Shown here one piece after another: positions 19,063-42,200 of a stretch of DNA of 44,923 bases (within the stretch, counting starts at the first letter, position 1; each line of letters starts with the position of its first letter). Both the position numbers and the translations under genes were made by a program. Where the stretch lies: positions 1 to 44,923 of the forward strand of contig NZ_JAAVAU010000022.1 of assembly GCF_014803895.1 (NCBI RefSeq). The letters run 5' to 3'. This DNA is from Lactobacillus sp. (GTDB lineage: Bacteria; Bacillota; Bacilli; Lactobacillales; Lactobacillaceae). Under the pieces are notes generated by a model that saw only the letters and a list, made by a program, of their open reading frames with translations, was not told the origin of the DNA and searched no databases.

Positions 19063-19259
19063 CTCTTATTTTATTATTTGCTGGTTTTTTGTCAAAAAAT
19101 TCTGCATATCAAGAAGATTGTCCAGCTTAAATTAACTTTTTAATTTGCAATAATATTTGAAGAGTGATAAAGGCATTATGTTAAACTGTATAGCGTAATA
19201 ATTTTCGTTTTCTACACAACGAAAAATTAACTTAAATTAGATTAGATGGATTGATTAAA
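19063..19259 (+). promoter_or_regulatory. hsdM leader with hairpin
   Basis: AT-rich leader without ORFs. It contains TTTTCGTT / AACGAAAA (19202-19209 / 19218-19225), a perfect 8-bp inverted repeat about 35 nt before the hsdM start, which could be an operator or leader hairpin. No consensus promoter is clear; TTGAAG near 19158 is a candidate -35. Confidence 0.35.
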
Positions 19260-20909
19260 ATGGTTGAAACTACTAAAAATTCTAAATCAAAATTATTTAA
19301 TTCGCTCTTTAGTGCGGCAGACTCTTTAAGAGGAAAGATGGATGCTAATGAATATAAAAATTATTTGTTAGGTTTGATTTTCTATAAATATTTGTCAGAT
19401 AAATTATTGTATCAAGCGGTTGAAGAATATTCTTGGGGTGAAGATAGTGATGTTTCTTTGGAAGAAGCACAAACAATTTATACTGAAAATTACCAAGATT
19501 TAAAGGATGAGTTAAAAGGTTCTTTGCGCTACACAATTGAGCCAGAACATACTTTTACTTATTTGATGCAAGAGATTGATGGTACTGCTCGAACTAAAGA
19601 TGGTAATGTTAAAACTTTCCAAAATTCTGATTTAGGTGATGCTTTTAATGATATTGAAAGTACTGGAAAAGAATTTGAAGGCTTATTTGATGATGTAGAC
19701 TTGTATTCTCGTCGCTTAGGTTCAAATGCACAAAAGCAAACTGATACTATCATGGATGTGATGAAGGCATTACGTGACATTCAGTTAGTTAATAGAGACA
19801 AGGATAGTAAATCAGACTCTCTCGGGGATGCATATGAATACTTAATTGGAGAATTTGCTTCTGAAAGTGGTAAAAAAGCTGGCGAGTTCTATACTCCTCA
19901 AGAAGTTTCTAAGATTTTAACCCGTTTAACTTTAGCTGGTGAAGAAAAGCCTTCAGAATTAACAGTTTATGACCCTGCAATGGGGTCAGGCTCTTTACTT
20001 TTGAACTTTAGAGATTTAGTGAAAAATCCTAATCGTATTGTTTACTATGGTCAAGAAATTAATGTTTCAACTTATAACTTGGCCAGAATGAATATGATCT
20101 TGCACGGGGTTAGTCCAGAAAATCAACACTTAAGATTAGGTGATACATTAGATGCAGACTGGCCACCAATTGGTGAGACGATGTTTGATGCGGTAGTAAT
20201 GAACCCACCATATTCATTAAAATGGTCAGCTGATAAGGGATTTTTAGATGATCCACGCTTCAGTAAGTATGGCGTCCTTCCACCTAAGTCCAAGGCAGAT
20301 TATGCATTTTTATTGCATGGCTTTTATCATTTGAAGAATACAGGAACTATGGCAATTGTTTTACCGCATGGTGTCTTATTCCGTGGTTCTGGTGAAGGGA
20401 AGATTCGTCAGAAGCTTCTTGAAGATGGTTCAATTGATGCAGTTATTGGGTTACCACCAAATATCTTTGTTAACACGCCAATTCCTACTACAATTGTCGT
20501 ATTGAAGAAGAATAAGACTGATCGTAGTGTGTTCTTTATTGATGCTTCAAGAGAATTTGAAAAGCAAAAGAAACAAAATAAATTAAGAAAAGAAGATATT
20601 GATAAAGTCATTTCAACTTATGAAAAGCGTGAAGATGTCGAAAGATATGCTCATTTGGCTGATTATAAGGAAATTAAAGAGAACGACTTCAACCTTAACA
20701 TCACTAGATATATTGATTCTTACGTTCCAGAGCCTCCGGTTGACTTGGAAAAGGTAGCAGCTAACTTGACTGAAACTCAAGCTCAAATTGATGAGAATGA
20801 GAAGAAGTTGGTAGGGATGCTCAAAGAATTAACTTCAGATGATGAAAAAATCATGACTGGGTTAAACGATATTATTAAGTTTTTTGAAAGCAATACGGAG
20901 GATAAATGA
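19260..20909 (+). CDS. hsdM: Type I restriction-modification DNA methyltransferase HsdM
   Basis: 549 aa from ATG 19260; a TTG three codons upstream is the alternative start. N-terminal helical HsdM_N domain (about residues 10-150), SAM motif I DPAMGSGSLLL near 239-249 and adenine-specific motif IV NPPY near 315-318. In complex with HsdS it methylates adenine in both strands of a bipartite target. The stop overlaps the hsdS start (ATGA), so M and S are translationally coupled. Length and motifs are intact. Confidence 0.95.
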   Translation: MVETTKNSKSKLFNSLFSAADSLRGKMDANEYKNYLLGLIFYKYLSDKLLYQAVEEYSWGEDSDVSLEEAQTIYTENYQDLKDELKGSLRYTIEPEHTFTYLMQEIDGTARTKDGNVKTFQNSDLGDAFNDIESTGKEFEGLFDDVDLYSRRLGSNAQKQTDTIMDVMKALRDIQLVNRDKDSKSDSLGDAYEYLIGEFASESGKKAGEFYTPQEVSKILTRLTLAGEEKPSELTVYDPAMGSGSLLLNFRDLVKNPNRIVYYGQEINVSTYNLARMNMILHGVSPENQHLRLGDTLDADWPPIGETMFDAVVMNPPYSLKWSADKGFLDDPRFSKYGVLPPKSKADYAFLLHGFYHLKNTGTMAIVLPHGVLFRGSGEGKIRQKLLEDGSIDAVIGLPPNIFVNTPIPTTIVVLKKNKTDRSVFFIDASREFEKQKKQNKLRKEDIDKVISTYEKREDVERYAHLADYKEIKENDFNLNITRYIDSYVPEPPVDLEKVAANLTETQAQIDENEKKLVGMLKELTSDDEKIMTGLNDIIKFFESNTEDK

Positions 20910-22114
20910 TGAATCAAGATTCTAAAAAAGCCCCTGTACTGCGCTTTAAGGGCTTTTCTGACGATTGGGAGCAACGTAAGCTTGGGGAAGTAGCTACTTT
21001 TCATAATGGTGATAGAGGCCGGAATTATCCGCAAGAAAGTGAATTAGTAAAAATAGGGATTCCATTTATTAATGCTGGAGATTTGATTAACGGAAAAATT
21101 GATACAAATAATTGTAAGAAAATAACTCCTGATAAATTTAATTCACTTCGTGGTGCTAAGTTAAAAATCGGAGATATAGTATATTGCTTAAGAGGTACTT
21201 TAGGAAAAAACGCTATAAATCTCGATGTTTCAATCGGTACCATCGCATCTTCTTTAGTCCTTATTCGACCAGTTAAAATAAATAATCATTATTTATTTCA
21301 AATTTTAAATTCTGATGTAGGAAACAAACAAATTTTAAAATTTGATGAAGGTGCAGTTCAACCTAATTTATCAGTTAAAAATTTAAGAAAATTTGTAATT
21401 CCATATGCTTCTAAATTAGAACAAGACAAAATTGCTAAATTAATGTCTTTAATTTCAGAAAATTTAACCCTTCAACAACGAAAATTAGAGCAAATTGATT
21501 CTTTAAAAAATACTGTAGTTGCAACATTGTTTGAAAATAAAAAAACATGGTCAAAAGTTAATTTAAAAGATATTAGTGAAATTTCAAGTGGCGCTAATGT
21601 AGATTCTAGGCACTCTAAAGGATCATTCAAAATAACTAGAATCGAGACAATTTCTTCAGGAGTATTAAACGAGGAAAAACTTGGATATACCAACGAAAAA
21701 ATAGATAACAAATATCTTCTAAAAAAAGGGGATATTTTGTTTAGTAATATTAATTCCTTAAAACATATAGGTAAAACTGCTTTAGCGACTTCATGTGAAG
21801 ACATATACCAAGGTATGAATTTATTAAGAATTAGGCCTAACATACAAAAAGTAGACCCTACTTACTTATTTACTTTTCTTAATCTTCCAGAAACTTTAGC
21901 TTGGTCACAAAGATTTGCTAATCCTGCTGTAAATCAAGCAAGTATTAACAAAACGCAAGTTTCAAAAATGCCAATATATTTGCCCTCATTAGCAGAACAA
22001 ATAGAAATTAAAAATATAGTTACTAAAATAGATTCATATATTTATAATCTGAATAAAAATATTCAAAATTTAAAACAGACTAAAAACTTTCTTCTTCAAA
22101 ACATGTTTATTTAA
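20906..22114 (+). CDS. hsdS: Type I R-M specificity subunit HsdS, expressed copy
   Basis: 402 aa. Starts at 20906 (ATGA overlap) or at the next ATG 20909, which is better spaced from GGAGG. Two target-recognition domains: TRD1 about residues 25-185 and TRD2 about 210-375, each followed by a conserved helical region. The characteristic WEQRKLGEV starts TRD1, LQQRKLEQ marks the central region, and FLLQNMFI ends the protein. The DNA encoding the WEQR and LQQRKL motifs is repeated in inverted orientation in the silent cassette at 23152-24306, so either or both TRDs can be exchanged by inversion. A hairpin follows directly, upstream of the recombinase gene. Confidence 0.95.
   Translation: MMNQDSKKAPVLRFKGFSDDWEQRKLGEVATFHNGDRGRNYPQESELVKIGIPFINAGDLINGKIDTNNCKKITPDKFNSLRGAKLKIGDIVYCLRGTLGKNAINLDVSIGTIASSLVLIRPVKINNHYLFQILNSDVGNKQILKFDEGAVQPNLSVKNLRKFVIPYASKLEQDKIAKLMSLISENLTLQQRKLEQIDSLKNTVVATLFENKKTWSKVNLKDISEISSGANVDSRHSKGSFKITRIETISSGVLNEEKLGYTNEKIDNKYLLKKGDILFSNINSLKHIGKTALATSCEDIYQGMNLLRIRPNIQKVDPTYLFTFLNLPETLAWSQRFANPAVNQASINKTQVSKMPIYLPSLAEQIEIKNIVTKIDSYIYNLNKNIQNLKQTKNFLLQNMFI
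20965..20976 (+). repeat. Inverted repeat IR1, left copy (predicted recombination site)
   Basis: TTGGGAGCAACG, encoding the WEQR motif at the beginning of TRD1; its inverted copy is at 24275-24286. Confidence 0.7.
21470..21486 (+). repeat. Inverted repeat IR2, left copy (predicted recombination site)
   Basis: CTTCAACAACGAAAATT, encoding LQQRKL in the central conserved region; its inverted copy is at 23807-23823. Confidence 0.75.
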
Positions 22115-22127
22115 ACTTGATAAAAAC

Positions 22128-22179
22128 AAAACCTCTTTGAACAATTAAGCACGTGACTTAATTAATTCAAGGAGGTTTT
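22128..22179 (+). promoter_or_regulatory. Long hairpin that terminates hsdS and encloses the recombinase Shine-Dalgarno
   Basis: AAAACCTC (22128-22135) pairs with GAGGTTTT (22172-22179), TTTGAA with TTCAAG, and AATTAAG with CTTAATT, around the 7-nt loop CACGTGA: about 21 bp with one small internal bulge. The 3' arm contains AAGGAGG, the ribosome binding site of the ATG at 22183. It ends in T5, so it may work as a terminator and as an RBS lock. Confidence 0.75.
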
Positions 22180-22182
22180 TAA

Positions 22183-23118
22183 ATGTCACGAAAAAATTAT
22201 AGTACCAAGTTGTTCTACAAGTATTACTTAGAATGGATTCATCTTTACAAGGATGATGCCGTTCGTTCAGTTACACTAGATAAATATTATTTAGTGCAAC
22301 GTCGCTTAAAAGAGTTAGCCCCAGATTTGCACATGAATGAGTTAACTCGTCAAAGCTACCAAAAAATTTTAAACCTTTATGCTCAAACCCATGAAAAAGC
22401 AACTGTATTAGATTTTCATCATCACTTAAAGGCAAGTATCTTTGATGCAGTTGATGATGGCTTACTAAAAAATTATCCAACACGTAGAGCTATCATTAAA
22501 GGACGAACTCCTTCAGAAAAGAAACCAAAGTTTTTAAACTTATTTGATTTACAAAGACTAATTCGCTCTCTTAATTTGAAAGAAGAATTAAGTTGGGATT
22601 GGTTCTTTTTACTAGTCGCAAAAAGTGGCTTACGTTTTGCCGAAGCATTAGCTTTGACACCAGAAGATTTCGATTTTGAAAATCAAGTTTTGATTATTAA
22701 TAAGTCTTGGAATTACAAAGATAAAAATGGTGGCTTCCAACCAACTAAAAATAAGGCATCTAATCGGAAAGTGATGATTGATTGGCATTTAATGCAACAA
22801 TTTAAAATCTTAATTGAAGATAGAGATAAAAAATTACCAATATTTTTCGACAAAGGCCAACGAGTTTATAATTCTAGCTTAAATAAAAAATTGGCTGGAT
22901 ACTGCGAAAATCTAAAAATACCAAAAATTTCAATCCATGGTCTTCGACATACTCATGCATCTCTCTTACTTTATGAAGGAGTATCAATTGCCAGCGTAGC
23001 TAAGAGATTAGGCCATACTAATACAACTACTACTCAAGAAACTTATATTCATATTATTCGCGAACTTGAAAATAAAGATAATGATAAAATTCTCCATCAC
23101 TTATCTCAATTAATGTAA
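22183..23118 (+). CDS. Tyrosine site-specific recombinase, predicted hsdS invertase
   Basis: 311 aa. The N-terminal SAM-like core-binding domain (about 1-115) is followed by the catalytic domain with Arg about 150 in SGLRFAEALAL, HGLRHTHASLL (His and Arg about 252-255), LGHTNTTTTQ and the nucleophile Tyr about 288 in ETYIHI. All residues of the tyrosine recombinase signature can be seen. It lies between two hsdS genes in opposite orientation, as in known phase-variable type I systems (for example CreX of Streptococcus pneumoniae), and inside both predicted inverting segments, so its orientation would flip together with the TRDs. Its ribosome binding site lies in a hairpin. Confidence 0.92.
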   Translation: MSRKNYSTKLFYKYYLEWIHLYKDDAVRSVTLDKYYLVQRRLKELAPDLHMNELTRQSYQKILNLYAQTHEKATVLDFHHHLKASIFDAVDDGLLKNYPTRRAIIKGRTPSEKKPKFLNLFDLQRLIRSLNLKEELSWDWFFLLVAKSGLRFAEALALTPEDFDFENQVLIINKSWNYKDKNGGFQPTKNKASNRKVMIDWHLMQQFKILIEDRDKKLPIFFDKGQRVYNSSLNKKLAGYCENLKIPKISIHGLRHTHASLLLYEGVSIASVAKRLGHTNTTTTQETYIHIIRELENKDNDKILHHLSQLM

Positions 23119-23120
23119 TT

Positions 23121-23150
23121 AAAAAAGACGCTCTTAATGGGCGTCTTTGT
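23121..23150. terminator. Bidirectional terminator between recombinase and silent hsdS
   Basis: AAAGACGC / GCGTCTTT (23124-23131 / 23141-23148), between convergent genes. Confidence 0.85.
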
Positions 23151-23806
23151 GCTATATAAACATATTTTGGAGTAAGAATTTCTTGATTTTTTTACAGTTA
23201 TTAATTTGTAAATCTAAATCCATTAAATTTTCATTAATGTTATTAACTATATTGGTTATGCGAATTTGGTTTTCCAAATTTTTAGGAATAGTGATTTTTA
23301 AATGTTTTAATGAACGTTGACTAATTCCTTGTGCTGTGCCTCCCGTAGCTAATCTCTGTAAATCATTTTGAACTCTTGGTGTTGATAAAATAAATGCTAA
23401 AAAATCATTTGTTATTAGCTTCTCATTTGGAACAAGAGCTATAACTCTTTGACTTAAAATATACTTTTCATTGTCAGGCACTTGAGCAACATTTCCTACC
23501 GGAGCTTCGGTTGTTAGCAATACTTGACCTTGATATAACTCATTACCCGTCATCCATATTTTATATAAATCATCATTACCAAAATGTACTGAGGCATTTT
23601 TATCTACATAGCCTTGTTTAACATTAAGTGCTGACAATGCTATATGTCCCTTAGTTGACCATGTGGATTTTAATTTTTTAGGCGTTTTTCCACGAAAATC
23701 TATAATTTTTTCTATAAGATCTAAAAAATTATATTCTATCCAATCATCGGATTTAGAATTAATAAGTTGTTGAGTAATACCTTTTTTAAAAGACTTTAGC
23801 TGTTTC

Positions 23807-23823
23807 AATTTTCGTTGTTGAAG
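23807..23823 (-). repeat. Inverted repeat IR2, right copy
   Basis: Exact 17-bp reverse complement of 21470-21486, in the central region of the silent cassette. Confidence 0.75.
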
Positions 23824-24274
23824 AGTATTTTCATAATCTAATGCATTTATTAAAAGTCCAATTTTGTTTTGTTCATTCATTCCAGGCACTTTAAATTTGG
23901 AGTTTGAAACTAAATTCCAATCTGAACGTGGCATTTTAGATCCAGAAGATAAATTACTAATATATTTAAACCGAGAAGTTTGGATTAAAGAAAAAAGAAA
24001 ATTGGAATCGGAATTTTCCTTTACTTCAAATACCCAAAAGTCCCCTACAGCAGATCCTTCAAAATTAGCTAATAGTCTATTATCCAAGTATGGACGTAAT
24101 TTGCCAAAAAGAATGTTTGTAGGATAAAAATGAGTACCTTGCTTTCCTGATGAAAGTTTTTTGAAAGGAGTTAATAATTTACCTTCACCAGCTTTAATAT
24201 CATCAAAAGTTACATTTAGTAAATTATTATCTTGGACCTGTTTAGTTACTCTTCTAATAAGCTGTAAGAAAGTT

Positions 24275-24286
24275 CGTTGCTCCCAA
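24275..24286 (-). repeat. Inverted repeat IR1, right copy
   Basis: Exact 12-bp reverse complement of 20965-20976, at the beginning of TRD1 of the silent cassette. Confidence 0.7.
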
Positions 24287-24305
24287 AAGAAAATCAGCAG
24301 AAAAA

Positions 24306-24334
24306 TTCAAAAAGTGATAATTTAAAAGTAAGAT
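24306..24334 (+). promoter_or_regulatory. Possible hsdR promoter
   Basis: TTCAAA (24306-24311), 17-bp spacer, TAAGAT (24329-24334). It lies just outside the inverting segment, so hsdR transcription would not depend on its state. Confidence 0.4.
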
Positions 24335-24359
24335 GTTTTGTGCAAGTAAGGAGTAAGCT

Positions 24360-27353
24360 ATGGAAGAAGAAAAAGTATTAGAAGACAATCTTATTCAGCA
24401 ATTAATTCATGGAGAATCTCAATGGACGCTGCGAGAAGATTTAAAAAATGAAGATGATCTATGGGATAATTTCTTCAAAATTTTGTCTCAAAATAATAAA
24501 AATGTTCTAAAAGATGTGCCGTTGACTGAAAATGAAAAGGCAATGATTAAGTCGAAAGTCGTGCATCCCACATTCTACCGTAGTGTTGAATGGCTAGCAG
24601 GTGCCAATAGGATGGTAAAATTACCAATTCCAAGAGATAAGAGTGAATTAGGAATTGCTGACTTAACAATTTTAGATAATACCAATATTACTGGTGGTAG
24701 TTCTGTCTATGAAGTAGTTCACCAAATTCAGTTCAAAAGAAGAGAGGATATTGACCGTAATCGTCGCACAGATGTAACTCTTTTAATCAATGGTTTGCCA
24801 ATGATTCATATTGAATTGAAGAATCGTAATCATGGTATTAATGATGCCTTCAACCAAATTCAAAAATATATCGATGAACAAATATTTAATGGGATTTTCT
24901 CAACTATTCAAATGTTCGTTGTAACCAATGGCACTGAGTCCAAATATATTGCCGCTGGTCAGCAATTACGTAAGAAGTTTATGACTAATTGGGTCGATAA
25001 GAATAATAAGCCAGTTCATGATTATTTGGCTTTTGCTAAGGATGTATTATCTATTCCAGCAGCCCACCATATGATTGCAGACTATGTTGTTTTAGATAAT
25101 GACCAAAAGAATATTATTTTGCTTCGTCCTTACCAAATTCATGCCATTCAAGCCATTGAACAAGCTTCAATAGGCGATAATCCCCAATCTGGTTTTATTT
25201 GGCATACAACTGGTTCTGGAAAGACTTTGACTTCTTACAAAGTTGCTCATAATTTGTTATCTATTCCATCGGTTCAAAAGACGATTTTCTTAATTGACCG
25301 TAATGATTTAGACACTCAGACAAGTTCTGCGTTTAAGACTTATGCTCAAACGGACACGATTGAAGTAAGCGATACTGACAATAGTTTTGATCTAGCTAGA
25401 AAGTTGGCTAGTCCTAACAAGCAGGTGATTGTTGCTACACGTCAGAAAATGCAGGCTCTTTTTAAGCATATTAAGAAAGACGAAAAAGAAAAGAAAATCT
25501 ATCAAAAAATTAGAAACATGCGGATGACTTTCATTGTTGATGAGTGTCACCGTGCCGTGAGTCCTGATCAAAAGAACGAAATTGATGCATTTTTTGCTAA
25601 AAAACCATTATGGTATGGATTTACAGGTACGCCAATTTTTGAAGAGAATGCTCGACAAGAGAAAGGCTCTAACGCTAGAACCACCGAGCAACAGTATGGT
25701 CATTGCTTGCATCGTTACACTATTAAAGATGCAATTAGAGATAATTCTGTCTTAGGTTTTCAAGTAGAAGAACGTGGTAGTGATGATAATGAAACTGATG
25801 ATGAAGATGATACAAAAAAATTAAATCAAATCTATTTATCAGAAAGTCATATGCGTCAAGTTGTAAAAAATTTCTTTAAGACAGCATACAGAAAGCTTGG
25901 GATTTATAATAAACAAAATCGTGGCTATACTTATTCTGCCTTGTTTACTACTAGTTCAATTAAGCAAGCACAAAGATACTATAAATTATTTAGAAAAGTA
26001 ATTAATGGTGAAGATGAAGAACTTAAGATTCCTGAAAGAATTAAGAAGTTTTTGCCAGATTTTCCTAGGATGGCAATTACATATTCAGTAGGCGAAAATG
26101 GTGATGAAGATGAGGCTAATCAAAATGAGATGAAGCAGTCACTTGAAGATTACAATCACTTATTTGGCACTCATTATAGTATGGATTTGCTTAAAGCTTA
26201 TAACACTAACGTAACTGAAAGATTGGCTCGTAAAAAGAAACAGTATCAAGCTCGTGATCAACAATTGGACTTCGTTATTGTTGTAGATAGATTGCTTACA
26301 GGATTTGACTCACCAAGCTTGTCAACGCTTTATATTGATCGTCGCCCAATGCCTTATAAAGATTTGATTCAAGCATTTTCGAGAACGAATCGTATTTTTG
26401 ATAAAGATAAAAAATATGGCCAGATTATTACTTTCCAATATCCTAAGAAGTACAAGGAAGATATTAATAATGCTCTGACTCTATACTCAGAAGGCGGAAA
26501 CAATGAAATTGTAAGACCTGAGTGGAAAGTTTCTAAGAATAAATTTGAAAAAGCAGAACACCAGATTATTAAATATAAGAATAATTCTGGAATCTCAATT
26601 CTTGATGCATCTGATGAAGATCAAAAGCAATTCTTAAAAGAATATCAACATTTTGACAAGGCCTATGGGGCACTTCAAACTTATAGTGAGTTCGATCAGA
26701 TTGATCCAAGTAAAGATTATGGCTTAGATGATAATTTCTTAGAAGACTTACGTGGAAAATATGAAATTATTCGTGAAAAGTTCAAATCTGGTGATGACGG
26801 AGAAGATGTGTCGGATATCGATTTTGATTATGAATTAGAAGTAGTTGATAAGCAGACAGTTGATTACAGTTACATCGTAAAACTTATTCAATCTTATATT
26901 CCGAGTGATGATGAAGAAGATAGTCATAAGACTGAGGCTGAAGTTAAAGAAATTGACGAATATATCAAGAATCTGGCTATCACTAATCCAACCGTAGCTC
27001 ATATTATGATGGAATTATGGAATAAGATTAAAGCTGATCCTAAGAAGTTTAGAAACAAGCAAGTAAATGAAATCTTGCAAAGTATGATTGATGACGCAAA
27101 GAATAATTTTTTAAAGAAATTTGCTGAAGAATATAAAGTTCAGCTTGATGCTCTTAAATATGTGATGAGACATTATAATTTGGAGAAAAATGAATTCGAT
27201 CAGTTAGGGATGCGGGATTTGTTAGCAAAGGAAAGTTTCTTAGAGTATAAAAAAGAACATGCTATTATTCCTCTAAAGTGGAAAAAGATGGTTCGAGAAG
27301 CTGTAAGAGAACTTTATCGAAAACAAATCAGTCCGTTGATTCATTTATCTTAA
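24360..27353 (+). CDS. hsdR: Type I restriction endonuclease subunit HsdR
   Basis: 997 aa, full length. N-terminal nuclease domain with the PD-(D/E)xK-like IADLTIL and MIHIELKNRN (about residues 99-155), then the SF2 translocase: Walker A HTTGSGKT near 281-288, DECH near 395, motif III GFTGTP near 420, and the later DRLLTGFDSPSL and QAFSRTNRI motifs. The C-terminal helical part is acidic. ATP-driven translocase that cleaves DNA unmethylated at the HsdS target. AAGGAG lies 8 nt before ATG. No damage visible, so restriction should be active. Ends at a terminator. Confidence 0.96.
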   Translation: MEEEKVLEDNLIQQLIHGESQWTLREDLKNEDDLWDNFFKILSQNNKNVLKDVPLTENEKAMIKSKVVHPTFYRSVEWLAGANRMVKLPIPRDKSELGIADLTILDNTNITGGSSVYEVVHQIQFKRREDIDRNRRTDVTLLINGLPMIHIELKNRNHGINDAFNQIQKYIDEQIFNGIFSTIQMFVVTNGTESKYIAAGQQLRKKFMTNWVDKNNKPVHDYLAFAKDVLSIPAAHHMIADYVVLDNDQKNIILLRPYQIHAIQAIEQASIGDNPQSGFIWHTTGSGKTLTSYKVAHNLLSIPSVQKTIFLIDRNDLDTQTSSAFKTYAQTDTIEVSDTDNSFDLARKLASPNKQVIVATRQKMQALFKHIKKDEKEKKIYQKIRNMRMTFIVDECHRAVSPDQKNEIDAFFAKKPLWYGFTGTPIFEENARQEKGSNARTTEQQYGHCLHRYTIKDAIRDNSVLGFQVEERGSDDNETDDEDDTKKLNQIYLSESHMRQVVKNFFKTAYRKLGIYNKQNRGYTYSALFTTSSIKQAQRYYKLFRKVINGEDEELKIPERIKKFLPDFPRMAITYSVGENGDEDEANQNEMKQSLEDYNHLFGTHYSMDLLKAYNTNVTERLARKKKQYQARDQQLDFVIVVDRLLTGFDSPSLSTLYIDRRPMPYKDLIQAFSRTNRIFDKDKKYGQIITFQYPKKYKEDINNALTLYSEGGNNEIVRPEWKVSKNKFEKAEHQIIKYKNNSGISILDASDEDQKQFLKEYQHFDKAYGALQTYSEFDQIDPSKDYGLDDNFLEDLRGKYEIIREKFKSGDDGEDVSDIDFDYELEVVDKQTVDYSYIVKLIQSYIPSDDEEDSHKTEAEVKEIDEYIKNLAITNPTVAHIMMELWNKIKADPKKFRNKQVNEILQSMIDDAKNNFLKKFAEEYKVQLDALKYVMRHYNLEKNEFDQLGMRDLLAKESFLEYKKEHAIIPLKWKKMVREAVRELYRKQISPLIHLS

Positions 27354-27361
27354 AAAAACAA

Positions 27362-27399
27362 AAAATCTCGACGCCTAAATGGAATCGAGATTTTATTTT
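27362..27399 (+). terminator. Terminator after hsdR
   Basis: Perfect 10-bp stem AAAATCTCGA / TCGAGATTTT (27362-27371 / 27385-27394), loop 13 nt, T-rich after. Confidence 0.82.
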
Positions 27400-27415
27400 G
27401 CTTAAGATTAAAAAC

Positions 27416-29427: not shown

Positions 29428-32094
29428 ATGGCTGATAAAAAATTACTTTTAATCGACGGAAATTCTGTAGCTTTCCGTGCTTTTTATGCTTTATATCGCC
29501 AGCTCGATAACTTTACCAGTCCCGATGGTTTACATACAAATGCTATTTATGCATTTAAAAATATGTTGGATGTAGTTTTGCGTGATACTGATCCATCTAA
29601 TGTCTTAGTAGCTTTTGATGCAGGAAAAGTCACTTTTAGAAATAAAATGTATGACGAATATAAGGGCGGTCGGGCAAAGACTCCGAGTGAACTTTCTGAA
29701 CAATTACCAGTTATTAAGGAATTGTTAGAGGATATGGGTATCAAAAGTTATGAATTAGCTAATTATGAAGCTGATGATATTATTGGTACTATGGCTAAAA
29801 TGGGTGCAGAAAAGGACTTCAAAGTTACGGTTGTGACAGGAGATCGTGACTTAACACAACTTGCTTCTGATCATACTACAGTTATGGTAACCAAGAAGGG
29901 TGTGGGTGAACTGGAAGCTTTTACCCCGGAGCATATGAAGGAAGTTAATGGGGTTACACCAACTGAATTCATTGATATGAAAGCTCTGATGGGGGACAGT
30001 TCAGATAACTACCCTGGAGTAGAGAAGATTGGTCCCAAAACTGCTGCTAAGCTTATTCAAAAATATGGTAGTGTAGAAAACTTATATGACCATATTGATG
30101 AAATGAAAAAGTCTAAAATGAAGGAGAATTTAATTAAGGATAAGGATAAGGCACTCTTAGGTAAGAAGTTAGCTACCATTAATTGTGATTCTCCAGTTGA
30201 CCTAAATTTAGAAGATACTAGTCGCCAGCCTGTTAATTATGAAAAATTACGTCAACTTTATGAACGTTTGAATTTTAGAAAGTTTTTAGCCCAACTTGAT
30301 CAAAGCGAAGCAGGTAGCGGTGAATCTTCTAGTCCCGCAGAAAGTTATGAATACGAAGTATTGACTCAAAGTAATTTAGGCAAAATAGCTAATCTGAAAG
30401 ATCAATCTGTAAGCTTTTATTTAGCAATGTTGGGTGAAAATTATCACTTGGCTCCCTTTAATGGCTTTGCTTTAAAAGTTGGCGATAAAAACTATGTTTC
30501 TAAAGATACTAGTTTACTTGAAGAAGATATTCTAAAAGATATTTTAGAAAATAAAAATATAAAGAAGAATGTTTTTGATATCAAAAGGACTTATGTTGGC
30601 TTACATCGCTTGGGAATTAAAGCAGAAGGTTTAGATTATGATATGTTGTTGGCCTCATATTTGGTCAATAATGAAAATAATTCTAATGACTTAGGTGAAA
30701 TAGCTCACCTTTATGATGAATATAGTGTGAAGACTGACTTAGAAGTTTACGGCAAAGGTAAAAAAGCAGCTATTCCAGAAGATGAGGTATTTTTCAAACA
30801 CTTAGCTGCAAAAGTCTCTATTATTGATAAATTAAAGCAACCACTCTTAGACAAGCTAAAAGAACATGAGCAAGATGATTTATACGAGACTATCGAAATT
30901 CCCGTTGCTTTTGTCTTAGCTAAAATGGAAATCGTTGGTATCAAGGTGGAAGCCTCTGTTTTAGTTCAAATGGGAAATGAATTAGCTATTAAGATTGCTG
31001 AATTAGAAAAGAAAATTTATGCCCAAGCTGGTGAAGAGTTTAATTTAAATTCGCCTAAGCAACTCGGTCATATTCTTTTTGAAAAACTTAACTTACCACC
31101 AATTAAAAAGACAAAAACAGGTTATTCAACTTCTGTTGAAGTTTTAGAGCAATTAAAACAAAAGAGTCCAATTGTTTCGGCAATCTTAGATTACCGCCAA
31201 TTGAGTAAATTACAATCGACCTATATTAAGGGGCTACTAGACTGCATTCAGCCTGATAGTAGGATTCATACCCGTTACTTACAGACCTTAACTGCAACTG
31301 GACGTCTTTCTTCAGTAGATCCTAATTTACAAAATATTCCTACTCGGACAGATGAAGGTAAACAAATTAGAAGGGCGTTTGTACCAAGCACTAAAGATGG
31401 ATATATTTTTTCTTGTGACTATTCGCAGGTGGAATTACGTGTGTTAGCCCATGTTTCGGGGGATGCAGCAATGCAGGAAGCCTTTAAGTCTGGTTATGAT
31501 ATCCATGCTCATACAGCTATGAAAATCTTTGGCCTGACTTCTACAGATGAAGTAACACCATTAATGCGGCGACATGCTAAGGCAGTTAACTTCGGAATTG
31601 TCTATGGTATTTCTGATTATGGCTTGTCCAAAAATATTGGTATTTCAAGAAAACAGGCTAAGCAATTCATTGATAATTATTTTGAACAGTATCCTCAAGT
31701 TCATGAATACATGGATAAGGCGGTTCAAGTTGCGCGAGAAAAAGGTTATGCTGAAACAATTATGCATCGTCGCAGATACTTACCTGATATTCATGCCAAG
31801 AACTTTAATGTACGAAGTTTTGCGGAAAGAACAGCTATTAATTCACCGATTCAAGGATCAGCTGCCGATATTATCAAAATCGCTATGATTAACATGCAAA
31901 ATAAACTTGATGAATTACACTTAAAGACTAAGATGGTCTTACAGGTACATGATGAATTAATATTTGATGTACCAAAAGATGAATTAGAGACTATTAAAGA
32001 AATCGTTCCACAAGTAATGCAATCAGCGGTTCAACTTGATGTGCCTTTGATTGCTGACTCTAATTGGGGTCATAATTGGTATGATGCTAAATAA
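29428..32094 (+). CDS. polA: DNA polymerase I
   Basis: 888 aa. The N-terminal 5' nuclease (about 1-290) shows YEADDIIGT, GDRDLTQLA and MGDSSDNYPGVEKIGPKTA. The middle part (about 310-490) is a vestigial 3'-5' exonuclease domain: the acidic residues of the Exo motifs are not visible, as in Bacillus/Lactobacillus enzymes, so no proofreading is expected. The polymerase has motif A SCDYSQVELR near 662-671, motif B RRHAKAVNFGIVYG near 714, and motif C VHDEL near 841. Removes RNA primers and fills gaps in replication and repair. AGGGAGG before ATG. First gene of the polA-mutM-coaE-nrdR-dnaB-dnaI run. Confidence 0.97.
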   Translation: MADKKLLLIDGNSVAFRAFYALYRQLDNFTSPDGLHTNAIYAFKNMLDVVLRDTDPSNVLVAFDAGKVTFRNKMYDEYKGGRAKTPSELSEQLPVIKELLEDMGIKSYELANYEADDIIGTMAKMGAEKDFKVTVVTGDRDLTQLASDHTTVMVTKKGVGELEAFTPEHMKEVNGVTPTEFIDMKALMGDSSDNYPGVEKIGPKTAAKLIQKYGSVENLYDHIDEMKKSKMKENLIKDKDKALLGKKLATINCDSPVDLNLEDTSRQPVNYEKLRQLYERLNFRKFLAQLDQSEAGSGESSSPAESYEYEVLTQSNLGKIANLKDQSVSFYLAMLGENYHLAPFNGFALKVGDKNYVSKDTSLLEEDILKDILENKNIKKNVFDIKRTYVGLHRLGIKAEGLDYDMLLASYLVNNENNSNDLGEIAHLYDEYSVKTDLEVYGKGKKAAIPEDEVFFKHLAAKVSIIDKLKQPLLDKLKEHEQDDLYETIEIPVAFVLAKMEIVGIKVEASVLVQMGNELAIKIAELEKKIYAQAGEEFNLNSPKQLGHILFEKLNLPPIKKTKTGYSTSVEVLEQLKQKSPIVSAILDYRQLSKLQSTYIKGLLDCIQPDSRIHTRYLQTLTATGRLSSVDPNLQNIPTRTDEGKQIRRAFVPSTKDGYIFSCDYSQVELRVLAHVSGDAAMQEAFKSGYDIHAHTAMKIFGLTSTDEVTPLMRRHAKAVNFGIVYGISDYGLSKNIGISRKQAKQFIDNYFEQYPQVHEYMDKAVQVAREKGYAETIMHRRRYLPDIHAKNFNVRSFAERTAINSPIQGSAADIIKIAMINMQNKLDELHLKTKMVLQVHDELIFDVPKDELETIKEIVPQVMQSAVQLDVPLIADSNWGHNWYDAK

Positions 32095-38929: not shown

Positions 38930-39209
38930 TTGTAACGGATGAAGCACGTTTTAGTTGAAAGGGTTATAAAACAAAAACGTGTTATCTAAAATTAATATTC
39001 AATACCGCTTCCGCAAATGGAGCATAAATAAAATATTTTAGTTGATGTGAAATAATGAAATAGCTTTAAAGAGCTACTTAATTACTCATTAATTTACAGA
39101 GACTAAGCCATAACTTTATCAATTGTTGAAGGAGCAAATGATGAAGTTAGGGTAACCGTTGATGCTAAAAGTGGTTTAACCACTTATGAGTTTGAGGAGA
39201 ATTATTATT
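38930..39209 (+). promoter_or_regulatory. Structured ~280-nt 5' leader of the adhesin
   Basis: CACGTTTT / AAAACGTG (38945-38952 / 38974-38981) forms a stem near the 5' end. AAGGAG (39129-39134) precedes ATGATG and a 4- to 5-codon frame MMKLG stop (39138-39155). Then comes a perfect palindrome AAGTGGTT-T-AACCACTT (39169-39185), 8 nt before the adhesin's GAGGAG site. This arrangement could allow translation control. No sequence family recognised. Confidence 0.45.
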
Positions 39210-42200
39210 ATGTTATCAAAGAATAATTATCAAGAAAAAATTAAGAAGATGGAACCTAAGCAAGATCGGTTCTCTATTCGTAAATTTACTGTAGGTACTG
39301 CTTCAGTATTAATCGGTTCATTCATTATGGGTGTAACTAGTGCTCATGTTGTTCACGCAGATACTGTTGAAGGTAATAATGACAGTGAAAAATCTGATGC
39401 AACTGATGCTATCCAAGATACTAAGACAATTAATATTACTGAAGCAAGTTCTGCTGCTGACCAAACTAGTGCAGCTTCATCTAGCGAAGCAGAATCTAGT
39501 GTAGCTTCATCTAGCGCAGTTGAATCAGACAGCACTAATACTTCAAGTTTTGCTGCTACATCTGCTAATAGTGAAAATTCTTCCGCAAAAGAATTTAGTG
39601 CAGTTGATAATTCTAAGAGCTTTACTACTGTTGGTAGTGCACAAGCAACTACAACTAAAAGTAGCGCTTCTGATGTAGCTTCTACCAAGGAAGCTGCAAG
39701 TTCTGCTCAAAATAAGGCTCAATCACAATCCGCTCAAACTAGTGAAAATAGTACTGCAACTAGTGAAAATAATGCCGCTAAGAGTAGTTCTGCTACAGCT
39801 AACTTAGATACAGCTACAGTTAAAAATTCAGTAGCTACTGAAACAACTCAATCAGCTGCAGCTACTAGTTCTTTTAATTCAGCAGATAGTAGTGCTGCCT
39901 CCGCTTCAACAGCAACTACTAATACTCTTGATTTAAATACTGATACTCTTTCAACTGATGCAGCTCAATTAGATACTAATACTTCTAAAGATGCACAAGC
40001 TTTAAAGACTGCTTCATTATTAAGAACTTCTTTAGTTCAATTAGCAGCTAATGCAAATGATGTAACTACTGATAGTCAAACTAAGTCCAGTGATACTGTA
40101 AAGCCTATTACTAGTTTTGCTGAGTTACAGTCTGCTGCAAGTAGTGGTGAAAAGAGTGTTACTATTTCTGGTAACATTACTGCAGTTACTGACTTAAATA
40201 TTAATAGCGATTTTACTATCAATGGTACAGATAATGCATCATTAACTTTTACTAATTCATCTGCTATTAACAACAATGGTAATTTAACTTTAAATAATCT
40301 TACTATTAATGGTTCCATTAAAGGTACTGGTACTGTTACCGTTGAAGGAACTGTAAATTCTAATGTTACTGATGCTAGTGCTGATACTCTATCAAATGAT
40401 GAGATGGATACCCAAATTGGTCAACACTCAGGTGATGGTGTAAAGAGTAGCAACTGGAAAGCAGCTAACATTTCTGCTTCTAAAGTTGATGTTGAACAAG
40501 GAGCAACTTTAAATATTAATCGTGACATCACTGGTGACGGTATTGCTTTAACTGGTGGTGCTGCAACATTTACAGATGATGGTTCAACTTTTGGTAAAAC
40601 TACTCCATCTAATGATAAGGGTACTTTAACTGTTGGTATTAACAGTACTTTAACTATTAACTTAAAGGATGCTACAACAGCTAGTCGTTCAAATGAAAGT
40701 AAGTCTAGTTTAGATAACGCTTCTGCTGGTATTCGTGCAGTTAATAATGGTCACGTAACTACTGGTGATAGTGCTCAAATTACAATTAATGCAGGACATG
40801 GACGTGCTATTGTATTTAATGAACCATTTGGTGGTACAACTTCAGTACAACAAAGTAGTAATTTGGAAACTGGCTGGTACAGAAATAGAAGTACTACACG
40901 TGATAAATCTTACGCTCAAGACACTAATAACTCAGTAGTATTTGGTGATTCAAACGTAGTTAATATTACTGGTCGTGATGGTATTTTAATTGGTAATAGA
41001 AGTCTTTTCCAAACTGGTGATCACAGTAAAGTTCACATTGACTCTAAGGGTAATGGTGCTGGACTTTTAGGTGATGCATTCAGTGTTGTTGAAGTATCAC
41101 CTCAATCAGAACTTATTTTAACTTCTGACGGTAAAGATAGATCAGGTCAATGGAGTGGTGGTAACTTTATTGGACTTGGTGAAAATGGTCAATTCCGTGT
41201 AGAACACGATGCTACATTTAAATATACCTTAGTTAACCGTAAAGGTACTCCAGATCCAAACGCATATGACGATAACATGAATATTATCTCAACCAACAGT
41301 AAATCTAAGCCTTTAGTTTATGTTGGTAATAACGCAGTCTTTGATGGTCAAAGTGACTACACAGACTACTATGGTGAAATTTTTGCCTTCCCACTAGGTG
41401 GTAGTACTAATGGTGTATTCCAAATTGATGGTGCAAAATATGTTAACTGGCAAAAGACTGCTACTGTATATGCTCACTCTAACCATGGTAACTTGTACTA
41501 CTCAATGGGTAAGAGTTTGATTGATGCTACTTCTCAAGATGGTCAATCATACTACGTCTTCAAGTGGAACAATAAAGACTTTAACGGTAAAACAGATACT
41601 TTTGATGATTCAACTGTAGATTCAACTAAGCAATCATTACAAAACTTTATTAATAGTTCAAGTGAATATTGGCAAAATGTTACTCACTTGGCAACTTCTT
41701 ACAGTAAGAACGGTAATTCTTCAGAATTCCCAGGTCACTATGTTGATAGTGTTTCTATGAATGGTGATGCCACTGCTGGTATGAAGAATGGTACTGCACT
41801 TAATAACTTTAAAGGTGGAGATGATGGATTCGATCCTGAAAGTTCACAACGTTTAGTTTTAGTTGCAACTATTATTCCTACTCAAGAAGATCAAACTGAA
41901 CAAGTTAAGGATCCATACCAAGTAATTGTCAAAGAAAATGATGAACTTAAACCAGGTGAAGTTCGAGTTGTTCAAAAGGGTGTTGATGGTTTAAAGCGTA
42001 CCACCACTACTACTTACTACAATGTTGATCCTTCAAGTGGTAATAAGACTCTTGATACTACTAAAGGTGATAATGGTGTAGAAACTACTACTACTGTTCT
42101 TAACGAAAAGCAAGATGAAATCATCGAAGTAGGTCCACAAACTGCAACTATTAATTACGTTCACCAAACTGGTACAGATGCTCAAGGTAATCCAACTTAT

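What the first reader, a model, noticed from the sequence alone, without database searches (positions are those of the whole stretch)
20906..24306. Invertible type I R-M specificity locus (predicted phase-variable methylome switch)
Seen: a functional plus-strand hsdS, a tyrosine recombinase, and a start-less minus-strand hsdS cassette, between hsdM and hsdR. The two hsdS genes share a 12-bp repeat at the start of TRD1 and a 17-bp repeat in the centre, in inverted orientation. Known: such inverting hsdS loci with a tyrosine recombinase create phasevarions in streptococci and others. Inference: inversion through IR1 swaps both TRDs, and through IR2 only TRD2, so combination gives four HsdS variants and four methylation patterns in one population.
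Basis: partly seen in the sequence, partly recalled or inferred. Interest (0 to 1): 0.85.

Follow-up and report, generated by a model that had tools for sequence, protein, structure and literature searches.

The report
Invertible DNA-specificity switch in Lactobacillus
A Lactobacillus locus carries a spare, start-less copy of the gene that sets which DNA sequence its restriction-methylation enzyme recognises and looks able to flip it in, a known kind of switch of which two predicted flipped forms turn up letter for letter in other public sequences.

Summary
Order: hsdM, active hsdS, tyrosine recombinase, start-less antisense hsdS', hsdR, in a Lactobacillus species not matched here. Inverting the window in silico through its 12-bp (IR1) and 17-bp (IR2) repeats gives four HsdS proteins. 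Three exist letter for letter in a public protein set: the window's own (P0001), the IR2 product (P0003) and the IR1+IR2 product (P0002). The IR1-only form was not found. Of 93 related recombinase genes, 63 sit between convergent hsdS genes, 25 oriented with hsdM, 27 opposite, 11 without hsdM on the fragment. IR1 alone is chance-level by length; its position and the public junctions carry it. The kind is known: L. reuteri LreRMII has the same gene set, with four TRD arrangements sequenced. Methylomes, coexistence in one culture and gene control are untested. Noticed here: a hairpin before the recombinase that pairs its Shine-Dalgarno (64 of 86 upstream regions, shuffled null 32; hsdM 6 of 41, hsdR 3 of 16). 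About half of 44 carry a good -10-like box in the 5' arm; the window's is weak. It may keep recombinase dose independent of orientation; unproven.

The parts
19251..20909 (+). hsdM, type I methyltransferase subunit (552 aa)
   Evidence: Pfam N6_Mtase 1.1e-108, HsdM_N 2.6e-22
20906..22114 (+). hsdS, active specificity gene; TRD1a-TRD2a; start overlaps the hsdM stop
   Evidence: Pfam Methylase_S 1.4e-29; protein without its first Met = P0001
20965..20976 (+). IR1 copy in active hsdS (WEQR codons)
   Evidence: exact match search
24275..24286 (-). IR1 copy in silent hsdS'
   Evidence: exact match search
21470..21486 (+). IR2 copy, centre of active hsdS (LQQRKL codons)
23807..23823 (-). IR2 copy, centre of silent hsdS'
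22117..22145 (+). promoter-like TTGATA-17-AACAAT whose start point would lie inside the hairpin (weak: 9 of 12 matches, -10 box 4 of 6)
22128..22179 (+). hairpin that buries the recombinase Shine-Dalgarno (AAGGAGG 22169-22175) under AAAACCTCTTTGAA (22128-22141)
   Evidence: fold of 22110-22200: -23.4 kcal/mol, z -6.51; positions checked; relatives
22183..23118 (+). tyrosine recombinase (311 aa), inside the invertible segment
   Evidence: Pfam Phage_integrase 1.9e-21; P0239, 100% identical, one member sequence in 9 contigs
23124..23148 (.). hairpin between recombinase and hsdS', A-rich before and U-rich after on each strand: possible two-way terminator
   Evidence: fold; not flagged by the consensus terminator scan
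23152..24306 (-). silent start-less hsdS' cassette, TRD1b-TRD2b
   Evidence: Methylase_S 3.4e-18; frame
24360..27353 (+). hsdR, restriction subunit (997 aa)
   Evidence: T1R_D3-like, SWI2_SNF2, HSDR_N, EcoR124_C; TIGR00348 above cut-off

Best explanation
A site-specific DNA inversion switch. The tyrosine recombinase recombines IR1 with IR1 (3,322-bp segment) or IR2 with IR2 (2,354-bp segment). The IR2 flip replaces TRD2 of the expressed hsdS, the IR1 flip replaces both TRDs, and both flips together replace TRD1 only, giving four HsdS subunits from one hsdM-hsdS operon. hsdS' as it lies is not expected to be translated whole because it has no start. Shown: anatomy, repeats, and three of four products in public sequence. 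Inferred: that this recombinase is the catalyst, that switching occurs within one culture, and that each form methylates a different motif.
For: In-silico inversions give proteins equal letter for letter to P0001 (no inversion), P0003 (IR2) and P0002 (IR1+IR2) (proteins found; segment identities 100%). P0239, the identical recombinase, lies in 9 contigs, the longest of the same length (154,435) as P0002's longest. 63 of 93 recombinase genes examined lie between convergent hsdS genes, 25 oriented with hsdM, 27 opposite, 11 without hsdM on the fragment; 49 of 63 have an inverted repeat of 12 bp or more near the hsdS centre and 22 of 63 near the start. Several close relatives carry nearly the same sites, TGGGAGCARCG and CTYCARCAACGAAAA. 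LreRMII of L. reuteri has the same gene set, and its Table 3 lists four TRD arrangements (PMC6122466 section 11).
Against: The IR1-only form was not among the 120 best hits listed. P0001-P0003 stand for clusters at 90% identity in contigs I could not read; one of P0001's two contigs may be the window itself; different samples or strains may hold the different forms. IR1 is only 12 bp, a length reached in about half of shuffles. In pneumococcus the longer repeats recombine without the locus recombinase (PMC6620402, passages).
Confidence: 0.93

Rival explanations
1. The forms are fixed alleles of different strains, made by occasional homologous exchange or domain shuffling between strains; the locus no longer flips and hsdS' is a relic.
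For: The public forms come from contigs whose origin I could not read. TRDs move between HsdS positions in general: TRD1a matches the second half and TRD2b the first half of one HsdS profile (PDLC03078).
Against: Exchanges end at 12- and 17-bp repeats with all TRD segments 100% identical; the recombinase frame is intact and identical in 9 contigs; its orientation is about 1:1 across relatives.
Confidence: 0.05
2. The chimeric HsdS proteins are assembly artefacts across repeats.
For: P0002 and P0003 carry only the source label 'ena' and no given name, so metagenome assemblies are likely.
Against: 12- and 17-bp repeats are shorter than the k-mers of usual assemblers (recalled); P0002 and P0003 stand for 2 and 3 contigs, the longest of 154 and 128 kb.
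Confidence: 0.02
3. For the hairpin before the recombinase: only an intrinsic terminator of the transcript that runs in, with the Shine-Dalgarno inside it by economy of space.
For: A T run follows the Shine-Dalgarno in most of the 27 aligned hairpins. 48 of 57 recombinases between two hsdS genes have the pairing, but only 4 of 14 with hsdS on the downstream side alone.
Against: 8 of 10 recombinases with no hsdS found on either side also have it (3 of the 10 near contig ends); among them L088 and L010, and in L010 it follows a separate strong hairpin. The consensus terminator scan did not flag the window's copy.
Confidence: 0.35

Closest known systems
LreRMII of Limosilactobacillus reuteri ATCC PTA 6475, with recombinase LsrA (PMC6122466; section 11 read in full, passages)
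   Same: Two hsdS genes on either side of an integrase/recombinase gene, flanked by hsdR and hsdM; two conserved regions per hsdS; four TRD arrangements of the first hsdS among the strains and clones of Table 3.
   Different: Other species; TRDs not compared. I did not compare LsrA itself with this recombinase; other Limosilactobacillus recombinases are 72-73% identical (L005, L007, L008, L009).
SpnD39III / Spn556II (cod) locus of Streptococcus pneumoniae with CreX/PsrA (PMC6620402, PMC7096588, PMC4948785, PMC12324116; passages only)
   Same: Tyrosine recombinase inside the invertible segment, silent hsdS, short repeats with a shared core, recombinase orientation changing with state.
   Different: Three hsdS genes, three repeat pairs (15, 85 and about 300 bp) and six forms there; two hsdS, two repeat pairs and four forms here.
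Four-way inverting type I system of Streptococcus suis and the REBASE survey (PMC7394358; section 6 in full and passages)
   Same: Duplicated hsdS with inverted repeats, silent copy without start; 'a number of Lactobacillus species' are mentioned among the hits.
   Different: The survey required repeats of at least 20 bp with 100% identity, so 12- and 17-bp repeats like these fall below its threshold.
Transposase mRNAs with a hidden ribosome-binding site, such as IS10 and IS200 (recalled; a title on IS200 mRNA structure was seen only in a reference list)
   Same: A hairpin hides the translation start of a recombination enzyme, as proposed here.
   Different: No homology tested; different enzymes and elements.

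Membership tests
Inverting type I R-M locus (SpnD39III / LreRMII kind) | hsdM, hsdR and one complete hsdS in one locus | tested here: met
Inverting type I R-M locus (SpnD39III / LreRMII kind) | second hsdS on the opposite strand without a start codon | tested here: met
Inverting type I R-M locus (SpnD39III / LreRMII kind) | inverted repeats at TRD borders of the two hsdS genes | tested here: met
   IR2 above chance, IR1 by position and junction only
Inverting type I R-M locus (SpnD39III / LreRMII kind) | locus-encoded site-specific recombinase | tested here: met
   Phage_integrase 1.9e-21
Inverting type I R-M locus (SpnD39III / LreRMII kind) | alternative arrangements observed in nature | tested here: met
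   3 of 4 predicted proteins found, 2 of them flipped forms; protein level only, contigs not read
Inverting type I R-M locus (SpnD39III / LreRMII kind) | switching within one clonal population, dependent on the recombinase | not testable with these tools
   needs reads or cultures
Phasevarion | distinct methylation motif per HsdS form and altered gene expression | not testable with these tools
   needs SMRT/Nanopore methylation calls and RNA-seq
Known Rfam RNA family | recombinase leader hairpin matches a described RNA family | tested here: not met
   0 matches at E <= 1 for window 20900-24400

The most novel reading that the evidence does not exclude
hsdS invertase genes of this family carry a conserved leader hairpin that traps their Shine-Dalgarno in any transcript reading in from outside, while a promoter overlapping the 5' arm starts transcription inside the hairpin and yields a translatable mRNA. 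The recombinase dose, and so the switching rate, would then not depend on which way the invertible segment, recombinase included, happens to point.
Probability: 0.4. Interest if true: 0.6.

Novelty: new member of a known kind. Interest (0 to 1): 0.42.

Why it matters
It shows that repeats as short as 12 and 17 bp, below the 20-bp cut-off of the REBASE survey, border the TRD exchanges seen in this locus, so such switches may be under-counted. Four HsdS forms would give a Lactobacillus population four methylation and restriction patterns, relevant to phage defence and transformability (inference). The leader hairpin, if functional, would explain how an inverting segment keeps its own invertase at a steady dose in either orientation, and it is directly testable.

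Tried and rejected
Chance for the repeats: rejected for IR2, not for IR1 by length alone. Assembly artefact and fixed alleles: weighed and scored low. Rfam: no match. Defence library: the best matches of HsdM, both HsdS and HsdR are type I subunits (weaker ones include MADS, type II and PglX models); nothing for the recombinase. NCBIfam: the recombinase is below the cut-off of each of the 9 families listed, XerA, XerC, XerD and XerS among them, so it is not filed as any of these. Formal pair counting on alignment A1 was not done, because MAFFT lined up the -10-like block and the Shine-Dalgarno but not the arms; arm swapping between sequences was used instead.

Results against the hairpin reading: with the Shine-Dalgarno kept and its upstream bases shuffled (20 rounds), 32.0 of 86 regions already paired it on average (maximum 39; observed 64). 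21 of 61 recombinases at 45-60% identity lack the pairing, and only 4 of 14 with hsdS on the downstream side alone have it. Of 44 hairpins, 12 had no -10-like box in the place tested and 9 had a box of 4 of 6 or better together with a -35 of 4 of 6 or better; the window is one of the 9 but its box is only 4 of 6, so it is not among the 21 with 5 of 6. Promoter-like matches in the region are no more common than in shuffles (34 against 40.6). Ten integrases of about 30% identity were a control: one had no start with a Shine-Dalgarno, and 1 of the other 9 reached the 0.8 criterion, 2 more 0.75.

Rows dropped: one search kept recombinase hits of at least 45% identity and 100 aligned residues that begin by query residue 20, with a Shine-Dalgarno-like word and 75 upstream bases, identical regions once (86 kept); the regions come from related species and are partly redundant. 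One search reduced them to 65 (below 80% identity), 46 with the hairpin, 44 with complete arms. One search left out L025-L084 and L100-L124 (places held again with wider flanks, short hsdS loci, distant integrases), of which L122-L124 were held in no other form, and L165 (same place as L005); identical frames were counted once; L184-L212 were fetched later. Its repeat counts are too low for some loci: L002, L006 and L017 show centre repeats that it missed. One search left out 15 of the 44 hairpins by hand, and one search aligned 27 of the remaining 29.
Full report
Observation. The window carries, in order, hsdM (19251-20909), hsdS (20906-22114), a tyrosine recombinase (22183-23118), an antisense hsdS' (frame 23152-24306) and hsdR (24360-27353). 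hsdS' has no start codon in frame before 24087, which lies inside its first TRD. IR1 (12 bp) and IR2 (17 bp) each occur exactly once per strand of the whole window, at homologous places of the two genes. By length alone IR2 is beyond chance (0 of 1000 shuffles reach 17) and IR1 is not (509 of 1000 reach 12). The recombinase sequence contains the blocks SGLRFAEA, HGLRHTH and LGHTN...ETY; that these hold the catalytic Arg, His-x-x-Arg and Tyr of the family is recalled, not tested.

Test by products. I inverted the window in a script through IR1, through IR2, and through both, and translated the hsdS that starts behind hsdM. The unflipped product equals P0001 (401 aa, from the second of two adjacent ATGs), the IR2 product (410 aa) equals P0003 and the IR1+IR2 product (387 aa) equals P0002, letter for letter. 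These proteins had been found beforehand by searching the active and the silent gene against about 5.8 billion proteins. P0001, P0003 and P0002 stand for 2, 3 and 2 contigs (longest 70,765, 128,332 and 154,435 bases); one of P0001's may be the window. The IR1-only product (396 aa) was not among the 120 best listed in either search, where it would be expected near the top. The identical recombinase (P0239) lies in 9 contigs. Clusters are at 90% identity, and I could not read these contigs.

Test by relatives. A scan of GTDB species genomes gave 24 loci with a recombinase relative, and 112 of 397 sampled genomes of the family have one at E <= 1e-80. Of 93 recombinase genes examined, 63 lie between convergent hsdS genes; the recombinase points with hsdM in 25 and against it in 27 (11 fragments lack hsdM). 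This near 1:1 split is what a flipping segment that contains the recombinase predicts. 49 of the 63 have an inverted repeat of at least 12 bp near the hsdS centre, 22 near the start, 21 both; some 12-13-bp cases may be chance, and a few true ones were missed (see Tried and rejected). In several close relatives the sites read TGGGAGCARCG (L001, L002, L008, L009, L011, L012, L085) and CTYCARCAACGAAAA (for example L001, L003, L004, L007, L008, L012), so both repeat pairs share a CARCG core within codons for WEQRKL and LQQRKL. The sites are conserved between species as DNA: over ten loci the longest centre match is 15-61 bp within a locus and 15 bp (median, maximum 29) between loci, so within-locus identity is only partly locus-specific. 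For the window, its own partner gives 17 bp, and 8 of 9 other species give 10-12 bp, one 18 bp.

Organism.

Known kind. L. reuteri LreRMII (hsdR, hsdSA, lsrA, hsdSB, hsdM) shows four TRD arrangements among its strains and clones (PMC6122466 section 11). Pneumococcal SpnD39III is the six-form paradigm; its three repeats share a 10-bp sequence, inversion at its 15-bp repeat was lost without CreX, and creX was 2.6-fold more expressed when oriented with the operon (PMC6620402 passages). A REBASE survey used a 20-bp minimum for repeats (PMC7394358 section 6) and mentions Lactobacillus species among its hits. The window is therefore a new member of a known kind.

A feature not asked about. Directly before the recombinase start lies a hairpin (22128-22179) whose 3' arm holds the Shine-Dalgarno (fold z -6.51). 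In 86 distinct recombinase upstream regions the Shine-Dalgarno is at least 80% paired to upstream bases in 64, against 6 of 41 for hsdM and 3 of 16 for hsdR. Shuffling the upstream bases gives 32.0 of 86 on average, maximum 39 in 20 rounds; hsdM and hsdR do not differ from their shuffles (7.2 and 2.7). At 60% identity or more to the window's recombinase the count is 24 of 25, at 45-60% it is 40 of 61. By context it is 48 of 57 between two hsdS genes, 4 of 5 with hsdS upstream only, 4 of 14 downstream only, 8 of 10 with neither. Median fold z is -3.16 and -1.82 in the two identity bands, against 0.39 (hsdM) and -0.02 (hsdR). In 44 non-redundant hairpins, eight stem columns distal to the Shine-Dalgarno pair in 214 of 352 cells within a sequence, against a mean of 158.2 and a maximum of 188 in 2000 swaps of arms between sequences; several columns show A-U and U-A, some also G-C and C-G. 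Relatedness is not removed by this test. 52 of 352 Shine-Dalgarno pairs in the 64 are G-U, which favours RNA pairing over a DNA palindrome. 21 of 44 carry a -10-like box of 5 of 6 or better in the 5' arm, against 6.5 expected; the window's own box is 4 of 6 with a TTGATA 17 bases before it. A transcript starting from the predicted box would leave the Shine-Dalgarno unpaired with mean probability 0.53, against 0.03 with the whole hairpin (31 cases; window 0.72 against 0.00). I read this as a trap for read-through transcripts that spares the gene's own mRNA, so that the recombinase dose does not follow the orientation. A plain terminator remains possible. Two recombinases without hsdS beside them, L088 and L010, keep the hairpin and stand next to amino-acid permease and tyrosine decarboxylase-like genes. 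Rfam has no match. Two paper searches for such a hairpin (7 papers and 1 paper) listed nothing on it in hsdS loci, judged from titles and the starts of abstracts; most subscription papers are not held.

Not shown: catalysis, coexistence in one culture, methylation motifs, gene-expression effects.

Noticed in passing
window 22117-22183; relatives L001, L003, L004, L007, L012, L014, L016, L087 and others: Conserved hairpin hiding the recombinase Shine-Dalgarno, in about half of 44 cases with a -10-like box of 5 of 6 or better in its 5' arm.
   Followed up: yes
L088 7108-8070 and L010 5669-6607: Orphan relatives of the recombinase with the same leader hairpin but no hsdS next to them; both stand beside antisense genes of the amino-acid permease and tyrosine decarboxylase families.
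   Followed up: partly
L009 4494-12192: Two hsdS-recombinase-hsdS units side by side in Limosilactobacillus fastidiosus, one recombinase broken by stops.
   Followed up: no
window 39186-44921: Large YSIRK-signal surface protein with mucin-binding repeats, running off the window end.
   Followed up: no
window 27344-27412: Inverted repeat of 28-nt arms around the end of hsdR, 71% complementary, possibly a terminator.
   Followed up: no
window 29428-32094: polA at most 81% identical to the 75 Lactobacillus genomes searched: unnamed or unheld species.
   Followed up: partly
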